Under the pieces are notes generated by a model. The model was not told the DNA's origin. It ran no database searches and was given only the letters and a program-made list of their open reading frames with translations. A stretch of DNA of 64,000 nt from Akkermansiaceae bacterium (GTDB lineage: Bacteria > Verrucomicrobiota > Verrucomicrobiia > Verrucomicrobiales > Akkermansiaceae): the NCBI GenBank assembly GCA_025363295.1, contig JANYEC010000085.1:1-64000 (forward strand), in the 5' to 3' direction. A program made the translations under genes and the position numbers. Positions 34,664 to 58,198 of the stretch are shown piece by piece; within the stretch, counting starts at the first letter, position 1, and each line of letters begins with the position of its first letter.

Positions 34664-35323
34664 ATGAAACTCCGATTTTTCCCATTTTTCTCGGCCTTGC
34701 TCATGGCTGGCCCTTCGTGCGCCGCTAGTCCTCCGGCAGCCCGAACAGGCCAACGGGTGGTTCTGGTGCATGGATTTCTGGAAACCGGTAACACATTCAA
34801 AATGCTCAAGGAACGTCTCGAAAAACGCGGCATTGAATGCTTCGTGCCGCGCCTCAATCCGAGCGATGGCCGCGGCGGATTAGAGACACTTGCACTCCAT
34901 CTGAAGCATGACATCGACGCGAAATTCGGCCCCGAAGATCCCATCAGCATCGTCGCCTTCAGCATGGGCGGGGTGATCAGCCGCCAATATTTACAAGTGC
35001 TCGGTGGAGCGGCGCGTTGCCAGAAGTTCATCACCATTTCCTCACCCCATCACGGCACGAACGCTGCCTGGCTTTACCCAACGAAAGGTGTTGAGGAAAT
35101 GCGTCCCGGCAGCGAGTTTCTAGCAAATTTAGAACGCACCCAGGGCGCACTTGGGGATATGCCCGTGACCTCCTATCGAACGCCGCTGGACTTGATCATC
35201 CTGCCTCCCAGTAACTCGGTCTGGAGTCGCGCAGAAAATCTAGCAGTTCCAGCACTGCTGCATCCGCTGATGCTAACGGACACACGCGTGATCGATGGCG
35301 TGGAGCAGCGTTTGGTAAAATGA
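34664..35323 (+). CDS. Alpha/beta hydrolase (lipase-like), secreted
   Basis: VVLVHGFLETGNTFKML, AFSMGGVISRQYLQ, ISSPHHGT. Confidence 0.85.
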   Translation: MKLRFFPFFSALLMAGPSCAASPPAARTGQRVVLVHGFLETGNTFKMLKERLEKRGIECFVPRLNPSDGRGGLETLALHLKHDIDAKFGPEDPISIVAFSMGGVISRQYLQVLGGAARCQKFITISSPHHGTNAAWLYPTKGVEEMRPGSEFLANLERTQGALGDMPVTSYRTPLDLIILPPSNSVWSRAENLAVPALLHPLMLTDTRVIDGVEQRLVK

Positions 35324-39362: not shown

Positions 39363-40772
39363 TCACCAAGTGCTGGTATTTCTCAGCTCTTCGAGTTTCG
39401 AATCGTAAATATTGAACTCGATTCGACTGAAAGCGGCGATCTTGAAAACGGCGCTGCCAAAGTTTTGATTCGTTCCAACGAGCGTGCCATCGCCCACGGA
39501 TTCGAGGCGGAACACGATAGATGTCCCATCTGGGAACCAGCCGCGGACGTCACCATTCTCGCGCTTGCAAGTCTCCCTCGCAGAGGGTTTTAAGGCGATG
39601 GTTTTGAACCTTTCGACAGGCAACCTGATTTCTTTGAAGGGAGTCTTGATCGCAATCATGTCGCCAGCAATGGAAACAATCTCACCCACGAGGCTGTCCC
39701 CGTTGCGCAGCATCATCCGGCCCTTCGTCGGTTTTTCTTCGACCGGCGGCTTTTGATCCTCCTGCATTTCTTGCCCCCCAAATTGGCGAAAGCCAGCGGC
39801 GGGCTGGATCTCGGGCATTTCATCCACCACGCCATCCCAAACACCGACTTGAATGTTAGATAGCCGCACAGGTGAGGCATTGAGCGTGATGAAATGAATG
39901 CCGCGCCCGATGATATTTGCTGCAACATCCGCGTCCTTCCACACTGCGGTGCACTTGCCATCAATGAAGACCGCGATCTGTCCGGACTTCGAGCTCGCGT
40001 GGATTTCGATTTTCGCCATTTCATTTTCCTGAAGTGCAAACGCATTGGCAACGCGACCGAGGGCTAACTGATTCTTGCCGCTCTGGAGAAAAATCGAGCG
40101 CTGCTGGAATGTCATTGAATACCCGCTCTCCGGGGAATCCTGTTTGAGATCATTCGAAAAGAAATTCACTTTTAAAGCGAAGGTGCCCCGCCAAGCCGCC
40201 TCGAAAACAAGACGGCATTCATCAGGAAGATCACAATTTCTAGCAATCCCCCCGGCAGCAGTGGAGCGAAATGATGAGTCCCGATAAGTCCATGCAGGCG
40301 GCTCCTCGGTTTGTGTCCAGTCGCTCAGTCCTGTAGGTCCTTGATAGACTAACGCCATTTGCTCATCGATCTGGATGTTTGCAATATTGACCCGGCGGAA
40401 TTTCATCCGTCCGGCGAACCAAGTATCGAGCTCGACTGCATCGTCGGTGATAGATGCAAGCTGGCCGCGAATGGTGTCGCCTTTGTAACCCGCAGTATGA
40501 TCGCGATTGGTCAGTGTAATGGTGGCCTCATACTTCGCTTCGCTTTTCGGCTGGGCGGGAGAAAGTTTAAGTTCCACGACGTCCTTGAGAAAAAATGGTG
40601 CGGGCTTTTCCAAAATGGAAGAGTTCCACACCAAGCGCTCTGTCGTGAGAGACTCCAAAGAGCCGGAAAGTAAATCGTTGTTAGAAAAGCGCACCACGGC
40701 CCCCGCTTCATCCGCTGCGGAAGCGAGGGCGAGTGAGGCAGCCAGTGCAATGATCGGGATCACAGGTTTCAT
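39363..40772 (-). CDS. Secreted protein, paralog A
   Basis: Signal peptide PIIALAASLALASA; FSNNDLLSGSLESL; LVYQGPTGLSDWTQ; IEIHASSKSGQIAVFIDGKCTAVW. 4-nt ATGA overlap with the upstream gene. Confidence 0.85.
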   Translation of the reverse strand: MKPVIPIIALAASLALASAADEAGAVVRFSNNDLLSGSLESLTTERLVWNSSILEKPAPFFLKDVVELKLSPAQPKSEAKYEATITLTNRDHTAGYKGDTIRGQLASITDDAVELDTWFAGRMKFRRVNIANIQIDEQMALVYQGPTGLSDWTQTEEPPAWTYRDSSFRSTAAGGIARNCDLPDECRLVFEAAWRGTFALKVNFFSNDLKQDSPESGYSMTFQQRSIFLQSGKNQLALGRVANAFALQENEMAKIEIHASSKSGQIAVFIDGKCTAVWKDADVAANIIGRGIHFITLNASPVRLSNIQVGVWDGVVDEMPEIQPAAGFRQFGGQEMQEDQKPPVEEKPTKGRMMLRNGDSLVGEIVSIAGDMIAIKTPFKEIRLPVERFKTIALKPSARETCKRENGDVRGWFPDGTSIVFRLESVGDGTLVGTNQNFGSAVFKIAAFSRIEFNIYDSKLEELRNTSTW

Positions 40773-42124
40773 TTTTCAGGGGCTTCCTTGGGTTTCCGAT
40801 CTTGGCGCTGCAAGGCAGTGACACCCGCCCGCCGGATGTTCAGCAGACCTAGCAATGGATGCATTGCAGAAACCGTAGTTTCGGTGAACGAGCAGGACGA
40901 GACATGTAGCATTCCGTTAGCCTGCAAGCGGAGAACAAATGGGTGGAGAGCATCTGCTTGTTTCACCTCATCCCGTTTTGCAAAGAATACCGTGGAAACA
41001 TCCGATTCCTGAAGCTCTAACGGTGCTTCTTGAAAATCGCTCTTGAAAGAGAAAACTAAGCCCTCACCCGTCTTCTTAATATCCGTTAGTTTTCCTCCCC
41101 AGCGATCGTCATCACGGCTGATCATGCTGTCCATTTTAGGATCGCCCCGTTCCTCCGAGCGATGGCGGCCCCGGGAGTCATCAAGCTCAAGGATCTCGAT
41201 GCCGCGAATTTCCTGTTCTATCCCGTTATTGGCATTACTCACCAAACAGACACCATTGCCTTCGGGTGCGCCTTTGATTGGATCGATCCCGGCTCCCTCG
41301 GGTTCACCATTGAGGAAAAGATGCAAGCGGGAGGACTTCCGATCTACTCGAATTTCCACATCGAGTTTGCTCTCGGAAAATTGCTCCGGCGTGCGGTTAG
41401 AAAGGATCACGGTGGTGTAGCGGTTGCCTTGAGTGGATTCGCGTTTGAGCTCAATTCCCGCTCCTGCGAATTGCAGATAATATCGATCGGCGACTTCCCC
41501 TTTAGGCTTGAGCGGATCAGCGAAGTAGATCTGGAAATTCGGATTGCCCTGCCATTTCAGAGAGAATCGGAAGATGAACTGAGTGGGAGTGTTGAAATTT
41601 TTCGCAACATAAGCCGGGCCGTTAGCAACCAGCGCATTGTTTTCAAAACGCCAGTTCTTCTCCCCTTCGATATCGCTGGTCCACTCATCAATGTTCTTCG
41701 GGCCGGAATAGATAACCTTGCTCACTTGGACCCCTAACTGAAGCGCTTTCACCGCCCCACGTGGGATGACAAGGCGACCGGCATCCATCGTCATCACGGT
41801 GATCCCCTTCTCGTCTAAGCCCTCAATCTTAACGGGAAGCAGGTCACCATTGATGAGCTCCACGACAGCCCCCGGTGTGTCGGGTCGATCATGAGGTGGA
41901 CTGAACTCCACTTTTTCTAAAGCTGCAGATTTAAGCAAAACCGGCTCCGGAGACAACGTGGTGGAAAGCTCGACCACACCCGCTTCATTGATCGATCGGA
42001 TCGTCCCACTGAGACTCGCATCTCCGGATAATGCGATTTCATCCGCATGCACTGAGACAGCTGCGAACGGGACGAGAACCATGCACAACCAGGACCTCAA
42101 GTTAAAAATCCGCATTCCAATCAT
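40769..42124 (-). CDS. Secreted protein, paralog B
   Basis: Signal peptide; VIYSGPKNIDEWTSD; LDVEIRVDRKSSRLHLFLNGEPEG. Shared architecture with its neighbours. Confidence 0.85.
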   Translation of the reverse strand: MIGMRIFNLRSWLCMVLVPFAAVSVHADEIALSGDASLSGTIRSINEAGVVELSTTLSPEPVLLKSAALEKVEFSPPHDRPDTPGAVVELINGDLLPVKIEGLDEKGITVMTMDAGRLVIPRGAVKALQLGVQVSKVIYSGPKNIDEWTSDIEGEKNWRFENNALVANGPAYVAKNFNTPTQFIFRFSLKWQGNPNFQIYFADPLKPKGEVADRYYLQFAGAGIELKRESTQGNRYTTVILSNRTPEQFSESKLDVEIRVDRKSSRLHLFLNGEPEGAGIDPIKGAPEGNGVCLVSNANNGIEQEIRGIEILELDDSRGRHRSEERGDPKMDSMISRDDDRWGGKLTDIKKTGEGLVFSFKSDFQEAPLELQESDVSTVFFAKRDEVKQADALHPFVLRLQANGMLHVSSCSFTETTVSAMHPLLGLLNIRRAGVTALQRQDRKPKEAPEK

Positions 42125-43625
42125 CGATACTGTTATTAGAGGGTTGAAAATCGAGCATGACTGCGGACTCCAGATTGAAATCCAGTTCCCCGGCGCACGG
42201 GTGGAGAATTTTTATCGCAGATGAAGTTCCTGATAGTGGACGCCCAGTGACTTGCCCCAGCGGACTGAGACGTATCACGATATTGTCCGCAGGCTCTTCC
42301 GTTTTACTAGCCAGTCGATTGCGGGCGAAGCGGATCTCAGCAATGTCGTCGAGTGGAAATTGGAATTCTCCATGTTTAGTTTCCAACAGAATTTTCCCAT
42401 CGTTGAGTGATTTCACATTTCCAGAAAAACGGTCCACCCCGTTGGAAAGAAGCACAATATCCTGGTCGTCCACTTGAAGGCTCCGGGCTGAGTCTGGCAT
42501 GCCATTCCACTCGGCCACCATCACGTCCGATAATCTAACTGGCGAGTTCTCCGACTGCACGATGAAGCCGAAGCCCGACCCTTTGGTGGACAGCGCTGGC
42601 ATCGCGGCACCACCCTCGCCGCCATCCGTCCACTGCGCGGCGAATTCATCATTGATAAAAAGCGAGATTTGGCCGGTGTTCCGATTACTACGGATTTCCA
42701 TCGTCGCATTCCCGGAATCACTGAGTCTGACATTGTTAGCATTCACCAAAACCCTTCCGATACTCGCAACGCCATCACCATTCACTGAAGTCCGATAGAG
42801 CATCAGGTGGCTGGAAAAAATATGTAACACATAGCTATTGCCAAAAATAATGGGCAACAACGCGGAATCACCCGACCCAAACTTCACAGCCTTTCCCGCG
42901 CCATCATTTCCTAAATCGCCTGCTTCCTTGCCGGGCTTGGGCTGGGCGAAGTCCGCGTGAAAACCAATCGCGATGGAGAGACGGTTTTTCCAAGCCAGTT
43001 CGAAACGCAGGATCGCGCGGTCTGGCATGACGTCCTTGCGCAGGATCGCAGTGCCAGACAGCTTACTTTGCCAATACCATGCGGAACCTGAAAATCTCCA
43101 TCGCCCCGGCATATCCTTTGCATCGCCTTCCTTCTTCCCCGAATCGGGAGCAGGATCCACAAAAGCGTTAGGAAAGGAGGCGTTCGCCATCTGCCACTCG
43201 TCTTCCACGAATGGCCCGTGATACTGAATACGCCCACCTAACGGGCTGGGTGCCAGCATCGCTACTTGATTGCGGGGAATTCGCACGACTCCGGCATACG
43301 ACGTATCAAGGGTGACCGTCTCATCGTCGAGTTTGCGGATGATCCCCGGCACACGGTCACCATCGACGAGAGCCACGTGCGAAAGCGATGTTAGGGATTT
43401 TAAAGCTCTCCCCCCATGCAGCACGATGTGGCGGATGCGGGACGGTTTAAAATCAACAGGTATAGTTAGATCCTCCCGTTGCCAGATCGCCTGCGGGCCG
43501 GATTTGAAGCCGAGATAGGTTCCGTGGAGTTGATCTCCATTCGTAAAACGCAACAAGTCGGATGGCTCGGCTGCCATTAACCCGACCAAGCCGGATAGCC
43601 ATGAGATGGAAAGTTTTCGAATCAT
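42102..43625 (-). CDS. Secreted protein, paralog C
   Basis: LLRFTNGDQLHGTYLGF; IQYHGPFVEDEWQM; ATMEIRSNRNTGQISLFINDEFAAQW; PVRLSDVMVAEWNG. Confidence 0.85.
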   Translation of the reverse strand: MIRKLSISWLSGLVGLMAAEPSDLLRFTNGDQLHGTYLGFKSGPQAIWQREDLTIPVDFKPSRIRHIVLHGGRALKSLTSLSHVALVDGDRVPGIIRKLDDETVTLDTSYAGVVRIPRNQVAMLAPSPLGGRIQYHGPFVEDEWQMANASFPNAFVDPAPDSGKKEGDAKDMPGRWRFSGSAWYWQSKLSGTAILRKDVMPDRAILRFELAWKNRLSIAIGFHADFAQPKPGKEAGDLGNDGAGKAVKFGSGDSALLPIIFGNSYVLHIFSSHLMLYRTSVNGDGVASIGRVLVNANNVRLSDSGNATMEIRSNRNTGQISLFINDEFAAQWTDGGEGGAAMPALSTKGSGFGFIVQSENSPVRLSDVMVAEWNGMPDSARSLQVDDQDIVLLSNGVDRFSGNVKSLNDGKILLETKHGEFQFPLDDIAEIRFARNRLASKTEEPADNIVIRLSPLGQVTGRPLSGTSSAIKILHPCAGELDFNLESAVMLDFQPSNNSIDDWNADF

Positions 43626-44623
43626 TTCTCGTAGATCGGCAGGTAGCGAAAATTCAGCGCCAATGATAGAAGTGCTCCCGCAGTGTTGAATGAAGCCCCT
43701 TGATTTCCCGGAAAAGAACCATCTGATAGCTGGATCGTGGAAAGGTAACGAATGTTACGTGCATTCCATTCCTTCCATGTCGTCTCATCCGCGTGGAACA
43801 GGGCCTGAGACATATAATATTCGTAATAGTAAGGATAATAACGGTCTCGATAATCGAGATTCTTTTTTAAGTAAGCCAGACTGGACTGATAGGATTTTGA
43901 ATCCGTCTCCTTGGCCAAGGACAAACAAAGCGTACCAACGGCCGTTAGCGTCGCCTTGCCGCCAGAGGAAGATGTATAACCGTATGACCCATCGGCACCG
44001 CGGCAACTCGCAAGAAAGGATAGGCCTTTTTTGATCGCTTCGTCGGGGACGCCGATTCCGGCGTTTCTCGCAGCAAACAAAGTGACCATCTGACAACCTG
44101 TGACGGTCGTGTCTGCATCGCGACTGTCTGGCGTGTATCGCCAGGCACCGAAACGGTTCTTCTTTTGCGAACTTAGAATCAGCTCGACCGCGTGCTTCAG
44201 TGCGGGCGCGATCTTTGGGTTATCCACCATGCCATAGGATTCTGCCAATGCTTTCGTGGCGAATGCGTGGTTATACATGCTGGAGCCAATATAGCCATTC
44301 GAGGCGTTCTGTTGGCTTAGAATATAATCTATTCCAGAGCGGATCGTTTTCGCGTAGGGACCGTTGTTAGGATCTTCACCGTGGGCGAGAATGGATGCGA
44401 CGCATAGACCCACCACCCCCGGCTCCGTTCCCACACTGTCATTCCAGTTGCCTTTTTCATTTTGGGTTCGGAGGAGGAATTGCAGCCCGCGCTCATAGAT
44501 CAATTCCGCTTGGGCAGGCACAGCATCCTCTTGGCGGCCTGGCACATCTTGAGCCACCACGGCACCTGCGAAAACGCCGAGCAAAGCAAGCAAGCAAACC
44601 CGTAAATGAGCGTGATATGACAT
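43622..44623 (-). CDS. Prenyltransferase/squalene-cyclase-like alpha-alpha toroid repeat protein, exported
   Basis: GLQFLLRTQNEKGNWNDSVGTEPGVVGLCVASIL, GIDYILSQQNASNGYIGSSMYNHAFATKAL, GLSFLASCRGADGSYGYTSSSGGKATLTAVGTLCLSLA; signal peptide. Confidence 0.85.
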   Translation of the reverse strand: MSYHAHLRVCLLALLGVFAGAVVAQDVPGRQEDAVPAQAELIYERGLQFLLRTQNEKGNWNDSVGTEPGVVGLCVASILAHGEDPNNGPYAKTIRSGIDYILSQQNASNGYIGSSMYNHAFATKALAESYGMVDNPKIAPALKHAVELILSSQKKNRFGAWRYTPDSRDADTTVTGCQMVTLFAARNAGIGVPDEAIKKGLSFLASCRGADGSYGYTSSSGGKATLTAVGTLCLSLAKETDSKSYQSSLAYLKKNLDYRDRYYPYYYEYYMSQALFHADETTWKEWNARNIRYLSTIQLSDGSFPGNQGASFNTAGALLSLALNFRYLPIYEK

Positions 44624-44637
44624 CGTTTGGCTTTCTG

Positions 44638-45267
44638 TTATTTGATCTTTTGTTCAGCGCCTCGGTTGTAGGCATCGAGAGCACCTCTAAATTCTTCGGG
44701 GAGCGAATGACCCGCAAGGCCGGCAGCTTTCGGCACGCGCCGGGCTTCGCTTTTACCGCCAGCTTGACCACCCGTTAGATCGTTAGGAGTATCAGATAAG
44801 CCGGAAACACCGCCGCCATTTCCCTTGTCGCTGGGCTTATCACCCTTGCCCTTACCCGGTTGATCGCCTTCCGGCTTTTTCCCCATCATCCGCTCCATCA
44901 TATCCATCATGGCGCTACCGGAATCACCCTCACCCCCTTGTTTCTTCTTTTCCTTGGCCGCCGCATGGATCTTTTCGATGATCTCTGTCTGTGCGGCGAT
45001 GGTGTCGCCACCCGTGTCGCTTTTCGCTAATCGGTCAGTGGCTTCGTCCATGATTTTTTCAACATCATTGAGAAGCTCGATGACCTGTGGTGTGGTTTGT
45101 TCGATGGTAAGCTGCTGAACATCCGCAGACAGTTCGTCTTGTTTGTCAGCAACTTTGGTGGAGCCATCGGTGTGTTTCGCCTCCTTGTCAACGAGAGGCA
45201 CGTCGTCGCCTAACACTAACTGACACGCGAGAAGCAGCAGCGCGGTGATTCGAAGTTGAGACCTCAT
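44638..45267 (-). CDS. Small exported protein, unknown function
   Basis: Signal peptide (ALLLLACQLVLG), charged/Gly-rich; ATGA overlap with 45264. Confidence 0.75.
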   Translation of the reverse strand: MRSQLRITALLLLACQLVLGDDVPLVDKEAKHTDGSTKVADKQDELSADVQQLTIEQTTPQVIELLNDVEKIMDEATDRLAKSDTGGDTIAAQTEIIEKIHAAAKEKKKQGGEGDSGSAMMDMMERMMGKKPEGDQPGKGKGDKPSDKGNGGGVSGLSDTPNDLTGGQAGGKSEARRVPKAAGLAGHSLPEEFRGALDAYNRGAEQKIK

Positions 45268-47960
45268 GGCTTTTCGGGGGTGTCAGGGGTTTCTTCAAAC
45301 TTGCGGTGAAGTTGCTCAAGCGCGCGAGTCTGGGCGCGGATGTCCTGCTCCTGTTGAATCAGCTTCATGACCCGCAGCATAAATTCAAAATCCTCGTCTT
45401 CCGGACTGGCTCCGCCACCGTCACCACCACCGCCACCCGCATCATTGTCGTTCTCACCTTCAAGTTTTTTCGCCCATTCGCTGAGTTTATCCGCCCATTT
45501 TTTCACGCCTTCGGTGGCGGTGAATGATTTGTTAGACGTCAATAACATGCGGACTTCTTCCAGCTCGATATCGATGCGGGAGTCCTTCATTTCATCCATG
45601 ATTTGTTTAAATGATTCCGTCTGGGTGCGGGCGAAGTAATGGGCCAGATCTTCCTGAATCCAGCGCACATCGGACGCGGTGTTGAGCTGCTGACTGGTGG
45701 CTTCATTGAGACGGCGCACATCCGAGGGATCGAGTTTCGCAGTCTTTGCGCCGAGAATCCGATCATACGCATCCACCAATGAACTGGCGATGCCGGTTTC
45801 CTCACCCGCCGCTTTTTTCAAACGATTCACAAAAGTGCCTGCTTCAAACTGGCGGTTCGCCTCGTTCGCTTTGTCGATGGCCTTCTGCATTTTCTCGATG
45901 ACCTTCTTTTGTTCCTCCACAGCCTGCGCCACGTCCTTCTGGGCTTTGTCCGGCGTGTTCGACTGCTCTCGCGAATCCCCAAGTTTTTGCTGCACCTTTG
46001 GAACGTCTTTTTCGCTGAGTTCCTGCATTGACTTCAGCGACTCCGCCATTTTTTTGAGAGTGTTTTTCTCAATGTCGCCGTTGCGCGTGGCGTCTTTCAT
46101 CAGATCTTCCATCCGCCTCGTTAGGTCATCGATCCGTCGCTTAGTTTCGGACTCCGCCTGATTCTGGGTTTCGAGACGATTTTTACTTTCGTCTTTCTGC
46201 AGTTCCTCACCGCTTAGTTTTTCGAGGCGTTGATTCTCATCTAACAACTCAAGCTCGTGACGCGCGAGATCTTCGAATTCGGTAATATTGCGATCAAACT
46301 TGCTCTTGAGCATTTGCGCATGCTCATCGCGAGTGAGCACATAAAGAATCACTGGTTCCGAATACACACGACCACGATTCGGAAAATAATCCTCACTGTA
46401 GGCACGAAGCGTGATTTTCTGCGGCTTAATCCCAAATGCAGCGGGAGAAAATGATGCGGGCTTGAGAATCCGACGTTGCTCGGCGGAGCCCTCGGCAAGT
46501 TTCATCTCACCCTTTGCGAGGGTCTCATCCGTGAGGCGGGTGAATTCGCCGCTCCATTCTAGGCCACTTTGTTTCACGCCGAAATCGTCTTCAGCGAGGA
46601 CTTCAAAATCCACCGTCTCCTCGGGCAGCATGACTTTTTGACGGTCCATTCCTTGAAGATAACAAGTCGGTGCTGCGTCGCGAAGTGCATCGACCCGCAA
46701 ACGAAAGCCCCCTTCGCCCACGAGACCTAACTGGTCAGTCCACTCGAAGGGGATTTCAAACGGAACCGTGCCCACTTCCATCACCGGCGTTTTGGCGACC
46801 GATCCTGATAGAGTGAGAGAACCTTGGAGCGGCTTGAAGTCGGGTGCGTCCTTGGTTTCCTCGATCACTTGTCCGCGGGTGGGGCCGAAAGACGCGCGAT
46901 CCAAGGGGCGATTAGTCGTTAGATCAATCCGCACCTTGCTACCTTCTACCGCGCTTAGCACACCAGTATTGAGATCGAGAGTCTTTTCCGGTATTCCGAG
47001 ATACGCGGGTGGCGTCACCACGGCGGCGACTGATTCGATGCTTGGTCGTGGCATCGGCTCGACCCGGACTTCATGCCGCAAATCGCCGATTTTAAAAACG
47101 AGCGTGCCCGGATCCTGCTGACCGGGAAACATGAAATGGTAGGTGTTATTTTCCAAACGCGTGGCCACTTCCGCTTGTAAACCATAGCGACCGCTGGCCG
47201 TCGCCGGGCGCTGCTCAGATTCCTTCGCGAGGCGGAGTGAAATTTCAAACGCTTCGCCAAAAGCCACCGCCCGATAGTGTGGAGGGTTGTCGAGCTTGGT
47301 GAAGGTGTAGCGCTCGGTTTTCGAAAGCGGCATTAGCCAACGCTGCAATGCATTGAAGCCTGCGCGTGGTGTTAGAATGAAAGCCGTTGCCGTGATGCCT
47401 GCCAGACCCAGCGCCGCCAATGCCCACCTTCGATGCCGCTGCGGAGGTAGGGCATCATCAAATTTCCTGCGACCCGCTTCCACCGCGACTGCCTCCATCG
47501 CCGCCTCACGCAGGCGCGGGGAAAGTGAATCCGAACTGCCCTGCTGATCTTGCAGCTCGATGACACCTAACAATCTATCACCAAGCCCCGGATAACGTTT
47601 AGCGATCAGCCGCGCGAGCTGTTCTTCCCGTCGCTGCCGCCACACCCAACGGTGCAACCAATAAGGCGCGAACAGTCCGAAAAGAGAAATGCCACCTAGC
47701 AGAATCCCCATGCGGACCAGTGCAGGTGTTGGAAAAATACGATCCAAACCGTAAACGAGAAGAAATGATAGCAGCAGCCCGATCACCCCTGCGGCGATCG
47801 CCTCCATGATTTTCACCCACCATAAGTGACGCCGAAAATCATCCAACTGAAGCCGTAGGGCTTCGGGAATGACCGCTTTAGGTGTAGCTGGAATGGGCGG
47901 CAGTGACATTTGAGAAATTGACCAAACTCCGGTGCGGCGGCGAAAGAAGGAAGCTCCCAA
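45264..47960 (-). CDS. Large membrane-anchored coiled-coil protein (DUF4175-like); true start probably at MSLPPIPATP
   Basis: Two N-terminal TM segments (IMEAIAAGVIGLLLSFLLVYGL, LGGISLFGLFAPYWL), one at WALAALGLAGITATAFIL, long charged coiled coil. Confidence 0.82.
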   Translation of the reverse strand: MGASFFRRRTGVWSISQMSLPPIPATPKAVIPEALRLQLDDFRRHLWWVKIMEAIAAGVIGLLLSFLLVYGLDRIFPTPALVRMGILLGGISLFGLFAPYWLHRWVWRQRREEQLARLIAKRYPGLGDRLLGVIELQDQQGSSDSLSPRLREAAMEAVAVEAGRRKFDDALPPQRHRRWALAALGLAGITATAFILTPRAGFNALQRWLMPLSKTERYTFTKLDNPPHYRAVAFGEAFEISLRLAKESEQRPATASGRYGLQAEVATRLENNTYHFMFPGQQDPGTLVFKIGDLRHEVRVEPMPRPSIESVAAVVTPPAYLGIPEKTLDLNTGVLSAVEGSKVRIDLTTNRPLDRASFGPTRGQVIEETKDAPDFKPLQGSLTLSGSVAKTPVMEVGTVPFEIPFEWTDQLGLVGEGGFRLRVDALRDAAPTCYLQGMDRQKVMLPEETVDFEVLAEDDFGVKQSGLEWSGEFTRLTDETLAKGEMKLAEGSAEQRRILKPASFSPAAFGIKPQKITLRAYSEDYFPNRGRVYSEPVILYVLTRDEHAQMLKSKFDRNITEFEDLARHELELLDENQRLEKLSGEELQKDESKNRLETQNQAESETKRRIDDLTRRMEDLMKDATRNGDIEKNTLKKMAESLKSMQELSEKDVPKVQQKLGDSREQSNTPDKAQKDVAQAVEEQKKVIEKMQKAIDKANEANRQFEAGTFVNRLKKAAGEETGIASSLVDAYDRILGAKTAKLDPSDVRRLNEATSQQLNTASDVRWIQEDLAHYFARTQTESFKQIMDEMKDSRIDIELEEVRMLLTSNKSFTATEGVKKWADKLSEWAKKLEGENDNDAGGGGGDGGGASPEDEDFEFMLRVMKLIQQEQDIRAQTRALEQLHRKFEETPDTPEKP

Positions 47961-48048: not shown

Positions 48049-48984
48049 TCATTCTGCGCCCCTCGCGACGAGCCGCTCCCGAATCCTTTGCAGCAACTCC
48101 GCGGTATGCGGCATCGCCACTCCGGATGCCTGCCCGCGTCGCAGCGGTTCGGCCCAGATCGGCGCCACTTCCACTTCCCGTCCCTCCACAAAGTCGATCA
48201 TGCTGGAGGTCCGATAAGCTCCCATTGGCCGGGTGCGCTCGATGTTGGAATGAATCAACTCGTCCTCCAAATCAAGGCCCTGCACTCTTGCCGCTTGCAC
48301 GACTTCCGTCATCAAAATGCGAATCTCGTTTTCCAAATTGCTGTCCGCCAGCAAAACGTCCGTTGTCACGCCGCCTTCTGCGACTGATAGACCATTGAAC
48401 GGAATGTTCCAAATCAACTTTTCCCATTGGGATTTGCGAAGATTTTCCACAGCAACTGCCTGAATCTTCGCGGCTTGGAAGCGTTTTGCCAATTCTGCCG
48501 CCCGCCCTTGTTTGCCCTTGCTCCACTCGCCGATGGAGATGCGTCCGCCGCCTGAATGGCTAACAAGACCGGCAGAAATTCGGTTGATGCACACGAAACA
48601 TAAGCCACCGAGGACGCGCTCTTTCCCCACAATTTCTGCGATGCTCTCACAGTTTCCTAAACCATTCTGCAACGTGAGCACCTGTGTTTTCTCATGCAGA
48701 AGCGGTGGTAAAACCTCGCCGAGCTGATCATTCGCGGTCGCCTTCCACGCGATGATGACCAAATCCACCGGCCCGATTTCGCTGGCCGTGCGATAGGCCT
48801 TCAATTCCGGAAATTCAAAATCCCCATCGATGCTCCGAACCTTCAAACCGTGCTCTGAAATCGCCTCGAAATCCGAGCGGATCAGAAACCGAACGTCTTC
48901 AGCCGCTGCCGCCAGGCGACTTCCGTAATAAAGCCCGATCGCGCCGGACCCGACAATTGCCACGCTTTGGAATGTCCAACTCAC
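48049..48984 (-). CDS. panE: 2-dehydropantoate 2-reductase (ketopantoate reductase)
   Basis: VAIVGSGAIGLYYGSRLAAA, LQNGLGNCESIAEIVGKERVLGGLCFV, WEKLIWNIPFNGLS. Confidence 0.93.
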   Translation of the reverse strand: MSWTFQSVAIVGSGAIGLYYGSRLAAAAEDVRFLIRSDFEAISEHGLKVRSIDGDFEFPELKAYRTASEIGPVDLVIIAWKATANDQLGEVLPPLLHEKTQVLTLQNGLGNCESIAEIVGKERVLGGLCFVCINRISAGLVSHSGGGRISIGEWSKGKQGRAAELAKRFQAAKIQAVAVENLRKSQWEKLIWNIPFNGLSVAEGGVTTDVLLADSNLENEIRILMTEVVQAARVQGLDLEDELIHSNIERTRPMGAYRTSSMIDFVEGREVEVAPIWAEPLRRGQASGVAMPHTAELLQRIRERLVARGAE

Positions 48985-48993
48985 TTCGGAAAA

Positions 48994-50046
48994 TCAGTCC
49001 TCTTTGAAGCCCTCAGCGCGACGTAAGTCAATGCAACGAGTCAGCCACTGGACTAGCTTTTCAGCCTCTTCAGACTCATTGCGCATCGAAGTGAGTGCGG
49101 CCCAATCGAGATGCGGTCGTGATTTGGGTGCGGAAATCCGGTTGAACTCGAGCCTTGCCATAATCGCCTCTGTTTCGCGCGGATGGGCATTCAAAATATT
49201 TGCTGGGCGCGGCAGATCCTCAAGCGCCTCTTCGGTTAGGCCGAACGAGGTCACACCCACGCCGAAAGTGGCACTCAAACGGCGGAGTCCGTCAGCCAGC
49301 GCTTCATCCTCAATCGGGGCGGCATAAATCAGTTCACCTCCTTGCGCCCACATCGAAACTGCGAGCGTTTGGAAAAAGTCCTCACGGTAAGTTTGCAAGG
49401 AGGGCTGGATTCTCAAGCGCGCCGCATGCAGGCGGAATGGCGCGATTCCCAGACGCTGCTTGAAGGCGAGCATCGTCTCATCTAACGACATTTCCTCATC
49501 CGGCGAGCCACCTGTTTCCCAATCGACTAACACAATCTCAGGATATTTCCATAAGTTACTAACTGGCGAGTCCTTGCCGAATGCCTGACGGAAAGCAAAA
49601 GGAAAGCGGCCATTGATTTCAAAATAACGCGTGACCACCGCACGGAATTTTCGGATCCGCAGCATCGCCCCGTCCACCATGTCGGAATCCGCGTAGGTGA
49701 GATCATCGAGGCGTCCTTGAGTGAGCGCTAACAGTTCCTGCGCCCCTGATAGAGCAGGCAGCGGCGCACTCCGGCGATAGTATCCTTGGCCTTTTTCCAC
49801 CTTCGCAATCGGCGAGGCCGGGTCGCAGGACATGATCGAAAAATGATAGCGGAGCGACGCATCGGAATAGTTCCCGGTCAGTTGCAAGCGTGTCAGACGG
49901 ATCAATTCGGTTCCTTTGATGGAATCCGCAGGATTCCCCGGCAAAAGGGAGGGAAGGATGTCTGATAGCTGCTTTCTGAGACTCATGGGGGCGATAAACG
50001 AAGGTTGCGTTGTGAGCATCCAATTCTCCCTCCACCCGATCATCAA
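48994..50046 (-). CDS. Uncharacterised protein with possible N-terminal winged-helix region
   Basis: Long ORF. LRKQLSDILPSLLPGNPADSIKGTELIRLTRLQL...DASLRYHFSIM looks like a DNA-binding N-terminus. C-terminal family not recognised. Confidence 0.7.
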   Translation of the reverse strand: MMIGWRENWMLTTQPSFIAPMSLRKQLSDILPSLLPGNPADSIKGTELIRLTRLQLTGNYSDASLRYHFSIMSCDPASPIAKVEKGQGYYRRSAPLPALSGAQELLALTQGRLDDLTYADSDMVDGAMLRIRKFRAVVTRYFEINGRFPFAFRQAFGKDSPVSNLWKYPEIVLVDWETGGSPDEEMSLDETMLAFKQRLGIAPFRLHAARLRIQPSLQTYREDFFQTLAVSMWAQGGELIYAAPIEDEALADGLRRLSATFGVGVTSFGLTEEALEDLPRPANILNAHPRETEAIMARLEFNRISAPKSRPHLDWAALTSMRNESEEAEKLVQWLTRCIDLRRAEGFKED

Positions 50047-51803: not shown

Positions 51804-53396
51804 TTATTTCGGCAACTTGATCTCCGGTGCGTCGGTTAGTTCGATGCTGGTATCGAGGTTCTTCAGTTTCACCCTGAAATCAAACAGATCCGTCCGCCGG
51901 TCGAGCCGAGGCGTGACGGAGCCGGAAGCCCTGGACCGATAGAGATCGCCAGTGTCAATGTCGGTGACTAACAGAGTTTCCACGTTAGAGTCGGCAATGG
52001 CTTGGATGCCGTCGCGGGCGAATTCAAAGTCGGATGGAGTGAACACCGCCGCTTGGCCGTAATGAATATCCATCGCCGGGACGCTCGGGAGATTGCCGAT
52101 GACCCCGGCGGTGGCGACGAAAATTTGGTTTTCAATCGCACGCGCCTGAGCGCAGTAGCGAACCCGAAGTTGGGCGTGGCGGTCGTCGCAGCAATACGGG
52201 ACAAAAAGGATGTCCACGCCTTGATCTGCTAGGTAACGGGTCGCTTCGGGGAACTCGACGTCATAACAGATCTGCACCGCGATCTTGGCTTTCGGCGTGG
52301 GCAGCACGATCAATTCGCTGCCGCCGGAAATGCCCCAGTAGCGTTTTTCCGAAGGGGTGATGTGCAGTTTCGGTTGGGCGATGTAGCGGCCCTCGGGATC
52401 GAAAATCAGGCACTTGTTATAGAGCTTGCCGTCCTCCTCGATCGGGTGGCTGCCGCCGATGATGTAGAGGCCATATTTTTGTGAGAGGCCGGACATCAGC
52501 TCGATAAAGGGGCCGGTGAAATCCGTGGATAGACGGCGAATGCCTTGGATGGATGACAGCGGCTCGATGAAGGAAAGCAGTTGGACCGTGAAAAACTCGG
52601 GAAACAGCACGAAGTCCGTGCGGTAGTCCGCCGCTGTTTCAACGAAGTATTCCACTTGATTGGCGAAGTCCTTGAAGCTGTCGATTTTCCGCACCTGGTA
52701 TTGCACGCAAGCGACGCGGACTTTCGACGACGATTCCGTTTCCACGTAATCGGGATTGAGCCACTCGATGAGGCTCGCGTGGTTCAGGCTCACCGGATCG
52801 GTGATGTAGTTGCGCAAGATGCCGCGGACGACAAATCCCTCGCGCAGTTGGAAACTCAGCACATGGTCGCGGATTTCGCCGTCCTTGACCTTTTGGACAT
52901 ACTCCTCAGGCGTCACATCCGCAGCGATCGGGGCATATCCGGCGAGCCGTCCCCCGGCAAGGATGCGGCGCAAATTGAGACGTTTGCAAAGCACGCGGCG
53001 GGCTTCATACAGCGCCGCGCCGATGCCCATTCCCTGGTTGTCGGGATCGACATAGACATCCGCGCCGTAAAGCGTGTCGCCGCTTGGGTCGTGGTTGTGG
53101 AAATAGCCGCCGTCGGTGACGCCCGCGTAGGTGTGCTGCCGGTAAGGGTCGCGATCCGCCTTGATAATCAGTGAAGCCACCGCGCCGACGATGCGATCGT
53201 TGATCACCGCGACGAGCTGTCCGACGGGAAAGACTTTCAGGTGATTATGCAACTGCCTCACACTCCAGACGACGTTCTCCTCGCCCAACAGCGGGAAGGC
53301 CTTGCTGTTCAGCTCGATGAGGCGGGGGAAATCCTCGGGCTCGACTTGCCGGATGATCACTTCCCCAGCTTTGGTTTGATACGTGGAAGTTTCCAT
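51804..53396 (-). CDS. GNAT N-acetyltransferase / carbon-nitrogen hydrolase (nitrilase) fusion
   Basis: GNAT: VDPDNQGMGIGAALYEARRVLCKRLNLRRILAGGRLAGY; nitrilase: LFPEFFTVQLLS, KLHITPSEKRYWGI, IAVQICYDVEFPEATRYLADQGVDILFVPYC. Confidence 0.93.
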   Translation of the reverse strand: METSTYQTKAGEVIIRQVEPEDFPRLIELNSKAFPLLGEENVVWSVRQLHNHLKVFPVGQLVAVINDRIVGAVASLIIKADRDPYRQHTYAGVTDGGYFHNHDPSGDTLYGADVYVDPDNQGMGIGAALYEARRVLCKRLNLRRILAGGRLAGYAPIAADVTPEEYVQKVKDGEIRDHVLSFQLREGFVVRGILRNYITDPVSLNHASLIEWLNPDYVETESSSKVRVACVQYQVRKIDSFKDFANQVEYFVETAADYRTDFVLFPEFFTVQLLSFIEPLSSIQGIRRLSTDFTGPFIELMSGLSQKYGLYIIGGSHPIEEDGKLYNKCLIFDPEGRYIAQPKLHITPSEKRYWGISGGSELIVLPTPKAKIAVQICYDVEFPEATRYLADQGVDILFVPYCCDDRHAQLRVRYCAQARAIENQIFVATAGVIGNLPSVPAMDIHYGQAAVFTPSDFEFARDGIQAIADSNVETLLVTDIDTGDLYRSRASGSVTPRLDRRTDLFDFRVKLKNLDTSIELTDAPEIKLPK

Positions 53397-56737: not shown

Positions 56738-58198
56738 TCAAGTTCCGCAAAAGGTCGCACGCACGACTTCCATCGGCGTGGGCGCGGCTTCGTAGGCGGC
56801 GAACTCTGCTTGTTCGGTGAATGGCTTTTGCAGCACTTGGTTCAGGCAATGGAAAGGTTCGTAGTCACCGCGGTTGCCCGCTTGGATCGCTTCCTCGATG
56901 CGATGGTTACGCGGAATGAAAATCGGATTGGTCCGGCGCATCAGCGCAAGGGCTTGGCGGTGATCGGTCGCCTGCAATCTCGCCCGCCACGCGGCCAGCC
57001 ACGCGGTGATCGATTCGGACTGCGCAAACAAAGTGCTTACCGGGAGGTCATCGCCCGTTTCTAACGCGTTTGATAGATGGCGAAATACGAGTGTGAAGTC
57101 CGCCTCGCCGGAAGCCATCGCTGAGAGTAAGTCGGTCACAAGGGCCCAGTCGGAGGTAAGGCTTTGATCCAAGCCGATCTTTGCTGCTAGACGTTCGTGC
57201 AGGGCGGTCTGATGGATTTCCGGGAATCGATCCAGCGCCGCTTCTGCTAGAGCAATGGATTTTGTTGAGTCGCCATCGAGCAATGGGATGAGAGTTTCCG
57301 CGAAGCGTGTTAGATTCCAATGCGCGATTGCTCCCTGCCGGCCAAAAGCGTAACGCCCTTGTTGGTCGATCGAGCTGAATTTTTTGAGCGGATGATAGGA
57401 ATCGAGAAAAGCACATGGGCCGTAGTCGATCGTTTCACCGGAGACGGACATGTTATCGGTATTCATCACGCCATGGATAAAGCCGAGCTGCATCCAATGA
57501 GCGATGAGCTGGGCCTGCCGCTTGATCACTCCATCGAGTAGGGCAAGGTAAGGATTTTCCGCGTGCATCGCGTATGGGTAGTGGCGGGCGATCACGTGAT
57601 CGGCGAGAATCCGCAGATGATGATCGTCATCTCTAGCAGCGAACCATTGGAAAGTGCCGATCCTGATATGCGACTGGGCAACGCGTGTAAACACGCCTCC
57701 GGGCACCATTCCCTCCCGCTGAACCTCCTCCCCGCTGGCCACTGCGGCGAGTGCACGGGTCGTGGGCACCCCGAGTGCAGCCATGGCTTCGGATACCACA
57801 TACTCCCTCAGGACCGGACCCAGCGCGGAGCGTCCGTCGCCGCGCCGCGAGAAAGGAGTGGGACCGGAGCCCTTCAACTGAATGTCGCGGCGCACCCCGT
57901 CTTTGCCGACGACCTCGCCTAGCAGGATGGCGCGGCCATCGCCCAACTGAGGTGAAAAGCCCCCAAACTGGTGACCGGAGTATGCCATGGCCAGAGGATC
58001 GGAGCCCTCCACGCGTTGGTTTCCTGATAGAACGGCAAGTCCTTCCGGCGACGTGAGACGAGCGACGTCGATCCCAAGATCAGCGGCCAGTTCGTGATTG
58101 AGCCGAATCATAATCGGAGCGCTGACCGGGGTGGGATCGGCCCTTTGGAAAAATGCGTCGGGCAGGCGCGAGTAGGAATTATCGAAGGGAAAGAGCAT
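56738..58198 (-). CDS. selO: Protein adenylyltransferase SelO / YdiU (UPF0061)
   Basis: AMAYSGHQFGGFSPQLGDGRAILLGE, DIQLKGSGPTPFSRRGDGRSALGPVLREY, HGVMNTDNMSVSGETIDYGPCAFLD. Confidence 0.96.
   Translation of the reverse strand: MLFPFDNSYSRLPDAFFQRADPTPVSAPIMIRLNHELAADLGIDVARLTSPEGLAVLSGNQRVEGSDPLAMAYSGHQFGGFSPQLGDGRAILLGEVVGKDGVRRDIQLKGSGPTPFSRRGDGRSALGPVLREYVVSEAMAALGVPTTRALAAVASGEEVQREGMVPGGVFTRVAQSHIRIGTFQWFAARDDDHHLRILADHVIARHYPYAMHAENPYLALLDGVIKRQAQLIAHWMQLGFIHGVMNTDNMSVSGETIDYGPCAFLDSYHPLKKFSSIDQQGRYAFGRQGAIAHWNLTRFAETLIPLLDGDSTKSIALAEAALDRFPEIHQTALHERLAAKIGLDQSLTSDWALVTDLLSAMASGEADFTLVFRHLSNALETGDDLPVSTLFAQSESITAWLAAWRARLQATDHRQALALMRRTNPIFIPRNHRIEEAIQAGNRGDYEPFHCLNQVLQKPFTEQAEFAAYEAAPTPMEVVRATFCGT

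What the first reader, a model, noticed from the sequence alone, without database searches (positions are those of the whole stretch)
39363..47960. Six-gene translationally coupled operon of exported and membrane proteins with unknown purpose
Genes run 45264-47960, 44638-45267, 43622-44623, 42102-43625, 40769-42124, 39363-40772 on the minus strand. Three junctions are exact 4-nt ATGA overlaps (45264-45267, 43622-43625, 40769-40772), one is a 23-nt overlap and one a 14-nt gap. Products are a membrane coiled-coil protein, a small exported protein, a squalene-cyclase-like toroid with a signal peptide, and three related secreted proteins. Such strict coupling suggests an envelope complex made in fixed ratio. 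This is the best candidate in the window for an undescribed system.
Basis: partly seen in the sequence, partly recalled or inferred. Interest (0 to 1): 0.62.

Follow-up and report, generated by a model that had tools for sequence, protein, structure and literature searches.

The report
Split MoxR/Bat-type envelope machine operon
The six linked genes are real and conserved, but they are the exported half of a larger, still uncharacterised machine: in many other Verrucomicrobiota the same genes follow an ATPase (MoxR) and its von-Willebrand-type partner proteins in one operon, and here that other half sits elsewhere in the genome yet is kept or lost together with them.

Summary
The six genes are confirmed, in order, with three ATGA overlaps. 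A = inner-membrane protein with Ig-like domains and a long helical stalk; B = small exported protein; C = exported single alpha-alpha toroid; D1-D3 = exported SH3-like/jelly-roll proteins. The order A-B-C-D is kept in 70 of 80 loci, nearly all Akkermansiaceae, and the overlaps are mostly kept. The system does not stand alone. In other families and classes of Verrucomicrobiota the same genes are the 3' half of one operon: MoxR, DUF58, BatA, a VWA/GATase-like protein, A+B (fused), [E], C, D. In this genome MoxR-DUF58-BatA and the VWA protein lie on other contigs. Yet A and BatA have identical presence/absence in 139 genomes, including 12 present / 8 absent within one genus (probably Akkermansia), where they are mostly hundreds of kb apart. 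A is a probable divergent DUF4175 relative. Best reading: the periplasmic half of a split MoxR/Bat-type machine, in which an ATP-driven MoxR acts on MIDAS-type VWA proteins and A/B carry the action across the inner membrane to C and D. The association is strong; the mechanism is inferred. It is a new variant of a known kind, not a new kind of system.

The parts
45264..47960 (-). gene A: inner-membrane protein (N-terminal helices), Ig-like domains, long C-terminal helical stalk; probable divergent DUF4175 (PF13779) relative; likely start ATG at 47909
44638..45267 (-). gene B: small exported protein, Gly/Lys-rich middle; fused to the C-terminus of A in other families; 4-nt ATGA overlap with A
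43622..44623 (-). gene C: exported single alpha-alpha toroid (squalene-cyclase/prenyltransferase-like fold), no DxDD acid motif
42102..43625 (-). gene D1: exported SH3-like / jelly-roll / SH3-like protein (by alignment to D3); 4-nt ATGA overlap with C
40769..42124 (-). gene D2: paralogue of D1; probable start ATG at 42115 (14-nt overlap with D1)
39363..40772 (-). gene D3: paralogue; model (mean pLDDT 85.9) shows SH3-like barrels flanking a galectin/LamG/CBM66-like jelly roll; 4-nt ATGA overlap with D2
48049..48984 (-). upstream ketopantoate reductase (ApbA/PanE); same strand, but only a local neighbour, not conserved with the system
48994..50046 (-). upstream conserved protein of unknown family; often near the operon, on either side, in Akkermansiaceae; membership uncertain

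Best explanation
The six genes encode the periplasmic arm of a MoxR/Bat-type envelope machine whose operon has been split in this lineage. Proposed working: MoxR (cytoplasmic AAA+ ATPase, encoded on another contig, C24) uses ATP to remodel VWA proteins that carry MIDAS metal sites (DUF58; the membrane-anchored BatA; and the VWA/GATase-like protein on C87). The change passes across the inner membrane to A, whose Ig-like domains and helical stalk, with B docked at the end, form a scaffold in the periplasm. A/B in turn present or mature the exported toroid C and the SH3/jelly-roll proteins D1-D3, which would bind a glycan, peptidoglycan or lipid ligand and so maintain or mature the envelope. Shown: gene content, order, fusion of A with B, operon linkage elsewhere, identical presence/absence. 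Inferred: location of each part, direction of force or signal, ligand, envelope-maintenance role. My confidence is about 0.9 for the association with the MoxR half, about 0.3 for the mechanism in detail; the figure given is for the statement that it is the periplasmic half of such a machine.
For: (1) Contiguous operons MoxR-DUF58-BatA-VWA-A/B-[E]-C-D, collinear and tightly packed, in other families of the order (L037, L038, L040, L043, L048) and in other classes of the phylum (L224, L225, L227-L230, L232, L234; nearly complete in L226, L231, L233). (2) Intermediate state: in L163 BatA-DUF58-MoxR lies about 2 kb away, divergent from A-B-C-D1-D2-D3. (3) The window's own genome keeps the other half elsewhere: MoxR-DUF58-BatA on C24 and the VWA protein on C87. 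(4) A and BatA orthologues have identical presence/absence in 59 relatives (52 present, 7 absent) and in 80 further genomes (36 present, 44 absent), with 12/8 inside genus g18 although mostly unlinked there. (5) A and B are fused in other families: B residues 63-206 match the C-terminus of the fused protein, E=1.5e-7. (6) DUF58, BatA and the VWA protein carry MIDAS DxSxS motifs; MoxR carries a Walker A. (7) PF13779 DUF4175 reaches A orthologues (G044 2.6e-4, G055 1.1e-4, G014 29.3 bits over the 27.3 cut-off). (8) A second, paralogous set MoxR-DUF58-BatA-VWA-...-toroid has the same order (L241-L243).
Against: No expression, interaction or localisation data. The window protein A itself does not reach the DUF4175 profile. 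In f1 and f6 the halves are unlinked, so dedicated partnership rests on presence/absence and distant synteny. The g18 genomes that lack it are mostly the smaller ones, so general gene loss could inflate the co-loss. D1-D3 and the fused, thioredoxin-bearing D of other families are only distantly alike.
Confidence: 0.68

Rival explanations
1. The six genes are a self-contained exported complex with its own job. The MoxR linkage elsewhere is an older arrangement, and after the split the halves work separately.
For: Order A-B-C-D1-D2-D3 is intact without MoxR nearby in nearly all Akkermansiaceae loci; D has changed from one large protein with thioredoxin to three proteins, and E is missing.
Against: Joint retention and loss of both halves in every genome tested, including unlinked ones; one locus still has both halves side by side.
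Confidence: 0.17
2. C is a lipid or isoprenoid enzyme and the operon is a metabolic (hopanoid-like or lipid-modifying) pathway with secreted helper proteins.
For: C matches squalene-hopene cyclase and prenyltransferase profiles above cut-off and sterol/hopene cyclases of known structure.
Against: C is one toroid, not two; it has no DxDD acid motif (sequence); it is exported; its neighbours are MoxR/VWA proteins, not isoprenoid genes.
Confidence: 0.07
3. It is a MoxR-vWA conflict/defence system of the ternary kind.
For: Shares the MoxR-VWA pair; such systems are described in planctomycetes among others (PMC7159879).
Against: No match to any defence model for ten proteins of the system and its neighbourhood; the clusters are conserved across families with fixed content; no variable effector seen.
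Confidence: 0.03

Closest known systems
Bat operons (Bacteroides aerotolerance) and spirochaete moxR-DUF58-bat clusters (PMC5700661, PMC3557215)
   Same: MoxR ATPase, DUF58, BatA double-anchor VWA with MIDAS, further partners including SH3-type domains; function unresolved
   Different: Here a DUF4175-like Ig/stalk protein, an exported toroid and jelly-roll/SH3 proteins; the operon is split in this family; BatD/BatE equivalents were not tested
Rhizobium leguminosarum RL3499-RL3502 (cmdA-cmdD) operon
   Same: [quoted passage not shown] mutants have envelope and morphology defects (as cited in PMC3893208 and PMC5700661; original paper not held)
   Different: Four genes; no toroid or D proteins named in the cited text; homology of individual proteins not tested here
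DUF4175 family (PF13779)
   Same: The profile reaches several A orthologues and, more strongly, paralogous A-like proteins
   Different: Window protein A is below detection
Squalene-hopene / oxidosqualene cyclase toroids (PF13243, PF00432)
   Same: Fold-level sequence match over the cut-off
   Different: Single toroid, signal peptide, acid motif absent
MoxR-vWA ternary conflict systems (PMC7159879)
   Same: MoxR-VWA couple
   Different: No third component of those systems recognised; no defence-model match

Membership tests
MoxR-DUF58-BatA (Bat/MRP-type) operon | MoxR AAA+ ATPase (PF07726) in the same operon as these genes | tested here: met
   Met in homologous operons of other families and classes; not met at the window locus itself, where MoxR is on another contig, C24
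MoxR-DUF58-BatA (Bat/MRP-type) operon | DUF58 and BatA-type double-anchor VWA proteins with MIDAS motifs | tested here: met
   PF01882, PF07584 and TIGR02226 matches; DxSxS motifs; in this genome on C24
MoxR-DUF58-BatA (Bat/MRP-type) operon | BatD/BatE (TPR) partners | not tested
   No BatD/BatE profile comparison was run; A has Ig-like domains
DUF4175 (PF13779) | Profile match over the curated cut-off | tested here: inconclusive
   One orthologue over the cut-off (29.3 vs 27.3 bits), two below at E about 1e-4; window protein not detected
Squalene cyclase / prenyltransferase toroid fold | PF13243/PF00432 match over the cut-off | tested here: met
   41.5 bits (cut-off 26.1) and 28.1 bits (cut-off 26.5)
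Squalene-hopene cyclase (enzyme) | Two toroid domains and DxDD(TA) acid motif | tested here: not met
   333 aa, one domain, no DxDD in the sequence; best NCBIfam match 43 bits against a cut-off of 322.7
3-keto-disaccharide hydrolase (PF06439) | Profile match over the cut-off | tested here: not met
   D2 16.6 bits vs 26.8; D1 and D3 none
MoxR-vWA ternary conflict system | Match to defence-system models | tested here: not met
   No PADLOC match for ten proteins
Any MoxR chaperone system | ATP-dependent action on the VWA/periplasmic partners | not testable with these tools
   Needs biochemistry

The most novel reading that the evidence does not exclude
An ATP-driven trans-envelope machine of Verrucomicrobiota in which a cytoplasmic MoxR ATPase acts through VWA membrane proteins and an Ig/coiled-coil scaffold (A/B) on an exported squalene-cyclase-like toroid and jelly-roll proteins. 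That would be a previously undescribed way to energise maturation or maintenance of envelope components in the periplasm, and it is present in probable Akkermansia genomes.
Probability: 0.3. Interest if true: 0.75.

Novelty: new variant of a known kind. Interest (0 to 1): 0.5.

Why it matters
MoxR-DUF58-Bat operons are widespread and their function is still open. This case gives the exported half a defined parts list (Ig/stalk scaffold, toroid, jelly-roll proteins) and a clean comparative handle: the two halves are on separate chromosomal sites in most Akkermansiaceae yet are kept or lost together. Because probable Akkermansia genomes carry both halves, single and double gene removals could test directly whether the MoxR half and the exported half are one machine and what it does for the envelope.

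Tried and rejected
Pfam, NCBIfam and PADLOC scans of A, B and D gave no usable names. Foldseek for D3 and A gave only domain-level resemblance: jelly roll for D3, Ig domains for A; whole-chain TM on the query side is about 0.1-0.3, so the listed toxin-domain and receptor names mean nothing beyond fold class. The DADTT stretch of C was considered as a cyclase acid motif and rejected by inspection: the position of the last aspartate of DxDD is a threonine. The upstream ApbA and 48994-50046 genes were considered as operon members; ApbA was rejected because its linkage is only local, the other was left open. The PF07090 (GATase1_like) profile reaches VWA proteins of second-type operons but does not detect the one of this genome. 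Papers: no description of the toroid together with MoxR/DUF58/BatA was found in the held library. The Verrucomicrobium spinosum essential-gene paper does not name these genes in its main text.

Full report
OBSERVATION. The six minus-strand ORFs are present as described. The exact 4-nt ATGA junctions A/B, C/D1 and D2/D3 are in the sequence. The D1/D2 overlap is more likely 14 nt than 23 nt, because D2 has a second ATG nine bases in and -14 is the commonest orthologue value. Protein A is annotated from a TTG, but orthologue lengths fit an ATG at 47909 better. In 80 loci from a species-level genome collection (Akkermansiaceae and other Verrucomicrobia records, among them Luteolibacter, Haloferula and Roseibacillus), 70 keep A-B-C in order followed by D genes, three are cut by a contig end, and seven keep C followed by D genes without A-B beside them. 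The -4 junction is kept in 44/69 (A/B), 54/74 (C/D1) and 58/68 (D2/D3). This is far beyond chance.

PARTS. A: helices at 33-75, 80-108 and 176-196, then beta domains from about 225 to 541, then helices to 889 (AlphaFold2, mean pLDDT 84.3, pTM 0.55); the beta part resembles tandem Ig domains. B, C and D1-D3 have Sec-type N-termini; B is not a conserved lipoprotein. C is over the Pfam cut-off for the cyclase/prenyltransferase toroid; it is a single domain and has no DxDD motif. D3 has SH3-like barrels on both sides of a galectin/CBM66-like jelly roll (pLDDT 85.9; CBM66 and Bacillus galectin-like matches with target-side TM about 0.6-0.7).

WHAT IT BELONGS TO. In other families of the order the genes lie in one run: MoxR (PF07726), DUF58 (PF01882), BatA (PF07584), a 735-aa VWA/GATase-like protein, A fused with B, an exported helical protein E, C, and a large D ending in a TlpA-type thioredoxin. 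Genomes of other classes show the same order (L224, L225, L227-L230, L232, L234). B's C-terminal part matches the C-terminus of the fused protein (E=1.5e-7). Locus L163 shows BatA-DUF58-MoxR divergent and about 2 kb from A-B-C-D1-D2-D3, an intermediate between joined and split. In the window's own genome MoxR-DUF58-BatA is on contig C24 and the VWA protein on C87. E was not found at the 20 same-family loci checked.

CO-OCCURRENCE. Among 59 relatives, orthologues of A and BatA are absent from exactly the same seven genomes (G003, G042, G043, G047, G050, G052, G057), which fall in five lineages. One A copy (G008) is cut by a contig end and was counted present. The VWA protein and C follow the same pattern except for single gaps in incomplete assemblies (G027; G025). 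In 80 further genomes of the phylum the sets are again identical, 36 present and 44 absent. Inside genus g18 (probably Akkermansia: the single contig of G170 is 2,664,102 bp, the size I recall for A. muciniphila ATCC BAA-835) there are 12 with both and 8 with neither. In most closed g18 genomes the two genes lie 0.4-0.8 Mb apart around the circle; in G285 they are about 16 kb apart. The 80 genomes were chosen mostly from those with some BatA-type hit, and relatedness means the Fisher values overstate independence; I count seven within-family contrasts (two in f1, one each in f2, f3, f4, f36, f47).

HOW IT LIKELY WORKS. From established knowledge of MoxR proteins (chaperone-like action, usually with VWA partners; PMC3893208) and of Bat and cmd operons (envelope and morphology defects in R. 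leguminosarum, function otherwise open; PMC5700661 and PMC3557215), the simplest model is an ATPase acting through MIDAS-type VWA membrane proteins on a periplasmic scaffold (A/B) that serves C and D in the envelope. The association is shown; the transmission across the membrane, the ligand of C and D, and the envelope role are inferred.

STANDING. Not a stand-alone undescribed six-gene system, and not a new kind: a new variant of the MoxR/Bat type, notable for its toroid and jelly-roll partners, for the split, and for the joint retention of unlinked halves. No paper in the held library was found that describes this combination; subscription literature was not searchable.

Noticed in passing
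48994-50046 (-): Conserved protein of no Pfam or NCBIfam family, 76-88% identical within the genus; lies just upstream of A in many Akkermansiaceae and downstream of D in probable Akkermansia genomes.
   Followed up: partly
L241, L242, L243 (and L240 in part): A second, paralogous operon MoxR-DUF58-BatA-VWA/GATase-...-toroid in the same order, present in some genomes alongside the one described.
   Followed up: partly
L174, L188, L191 (also L182, L194, L195, L196): C followed by D genes without A-B next to them: a further break point of the operon.
   Followed up: no
L043:929-4237, L046:9288-12761: The single large D of other families ends in a TlpA/ResA-type thioredoxin with CxxC; absent from the split D1-D3 of this family.
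   Followed up: partly
L043:5287-7848, L040:3388-8270: Gene E between A/B and C in other families: exported helical repeat protein, up to three tandem copies, no family match.
   Followed up: no
G000:C112:11960-12355 (L002, L108): A second, weakly similar toroid protein elsewhere in this genome.
   Followed up: no
51804-53396 (-): GNAT acetyltransferase fused to a carbon-nitrogen hydrolase.
   Followed up: no
56738-58198 (-): SelO-type protein adenylyltransferase, strong Pfam match.
   Followed up: no
34664-35323 (+): Alpha/beta-hydrolase-fold protein.
   Followed up: no
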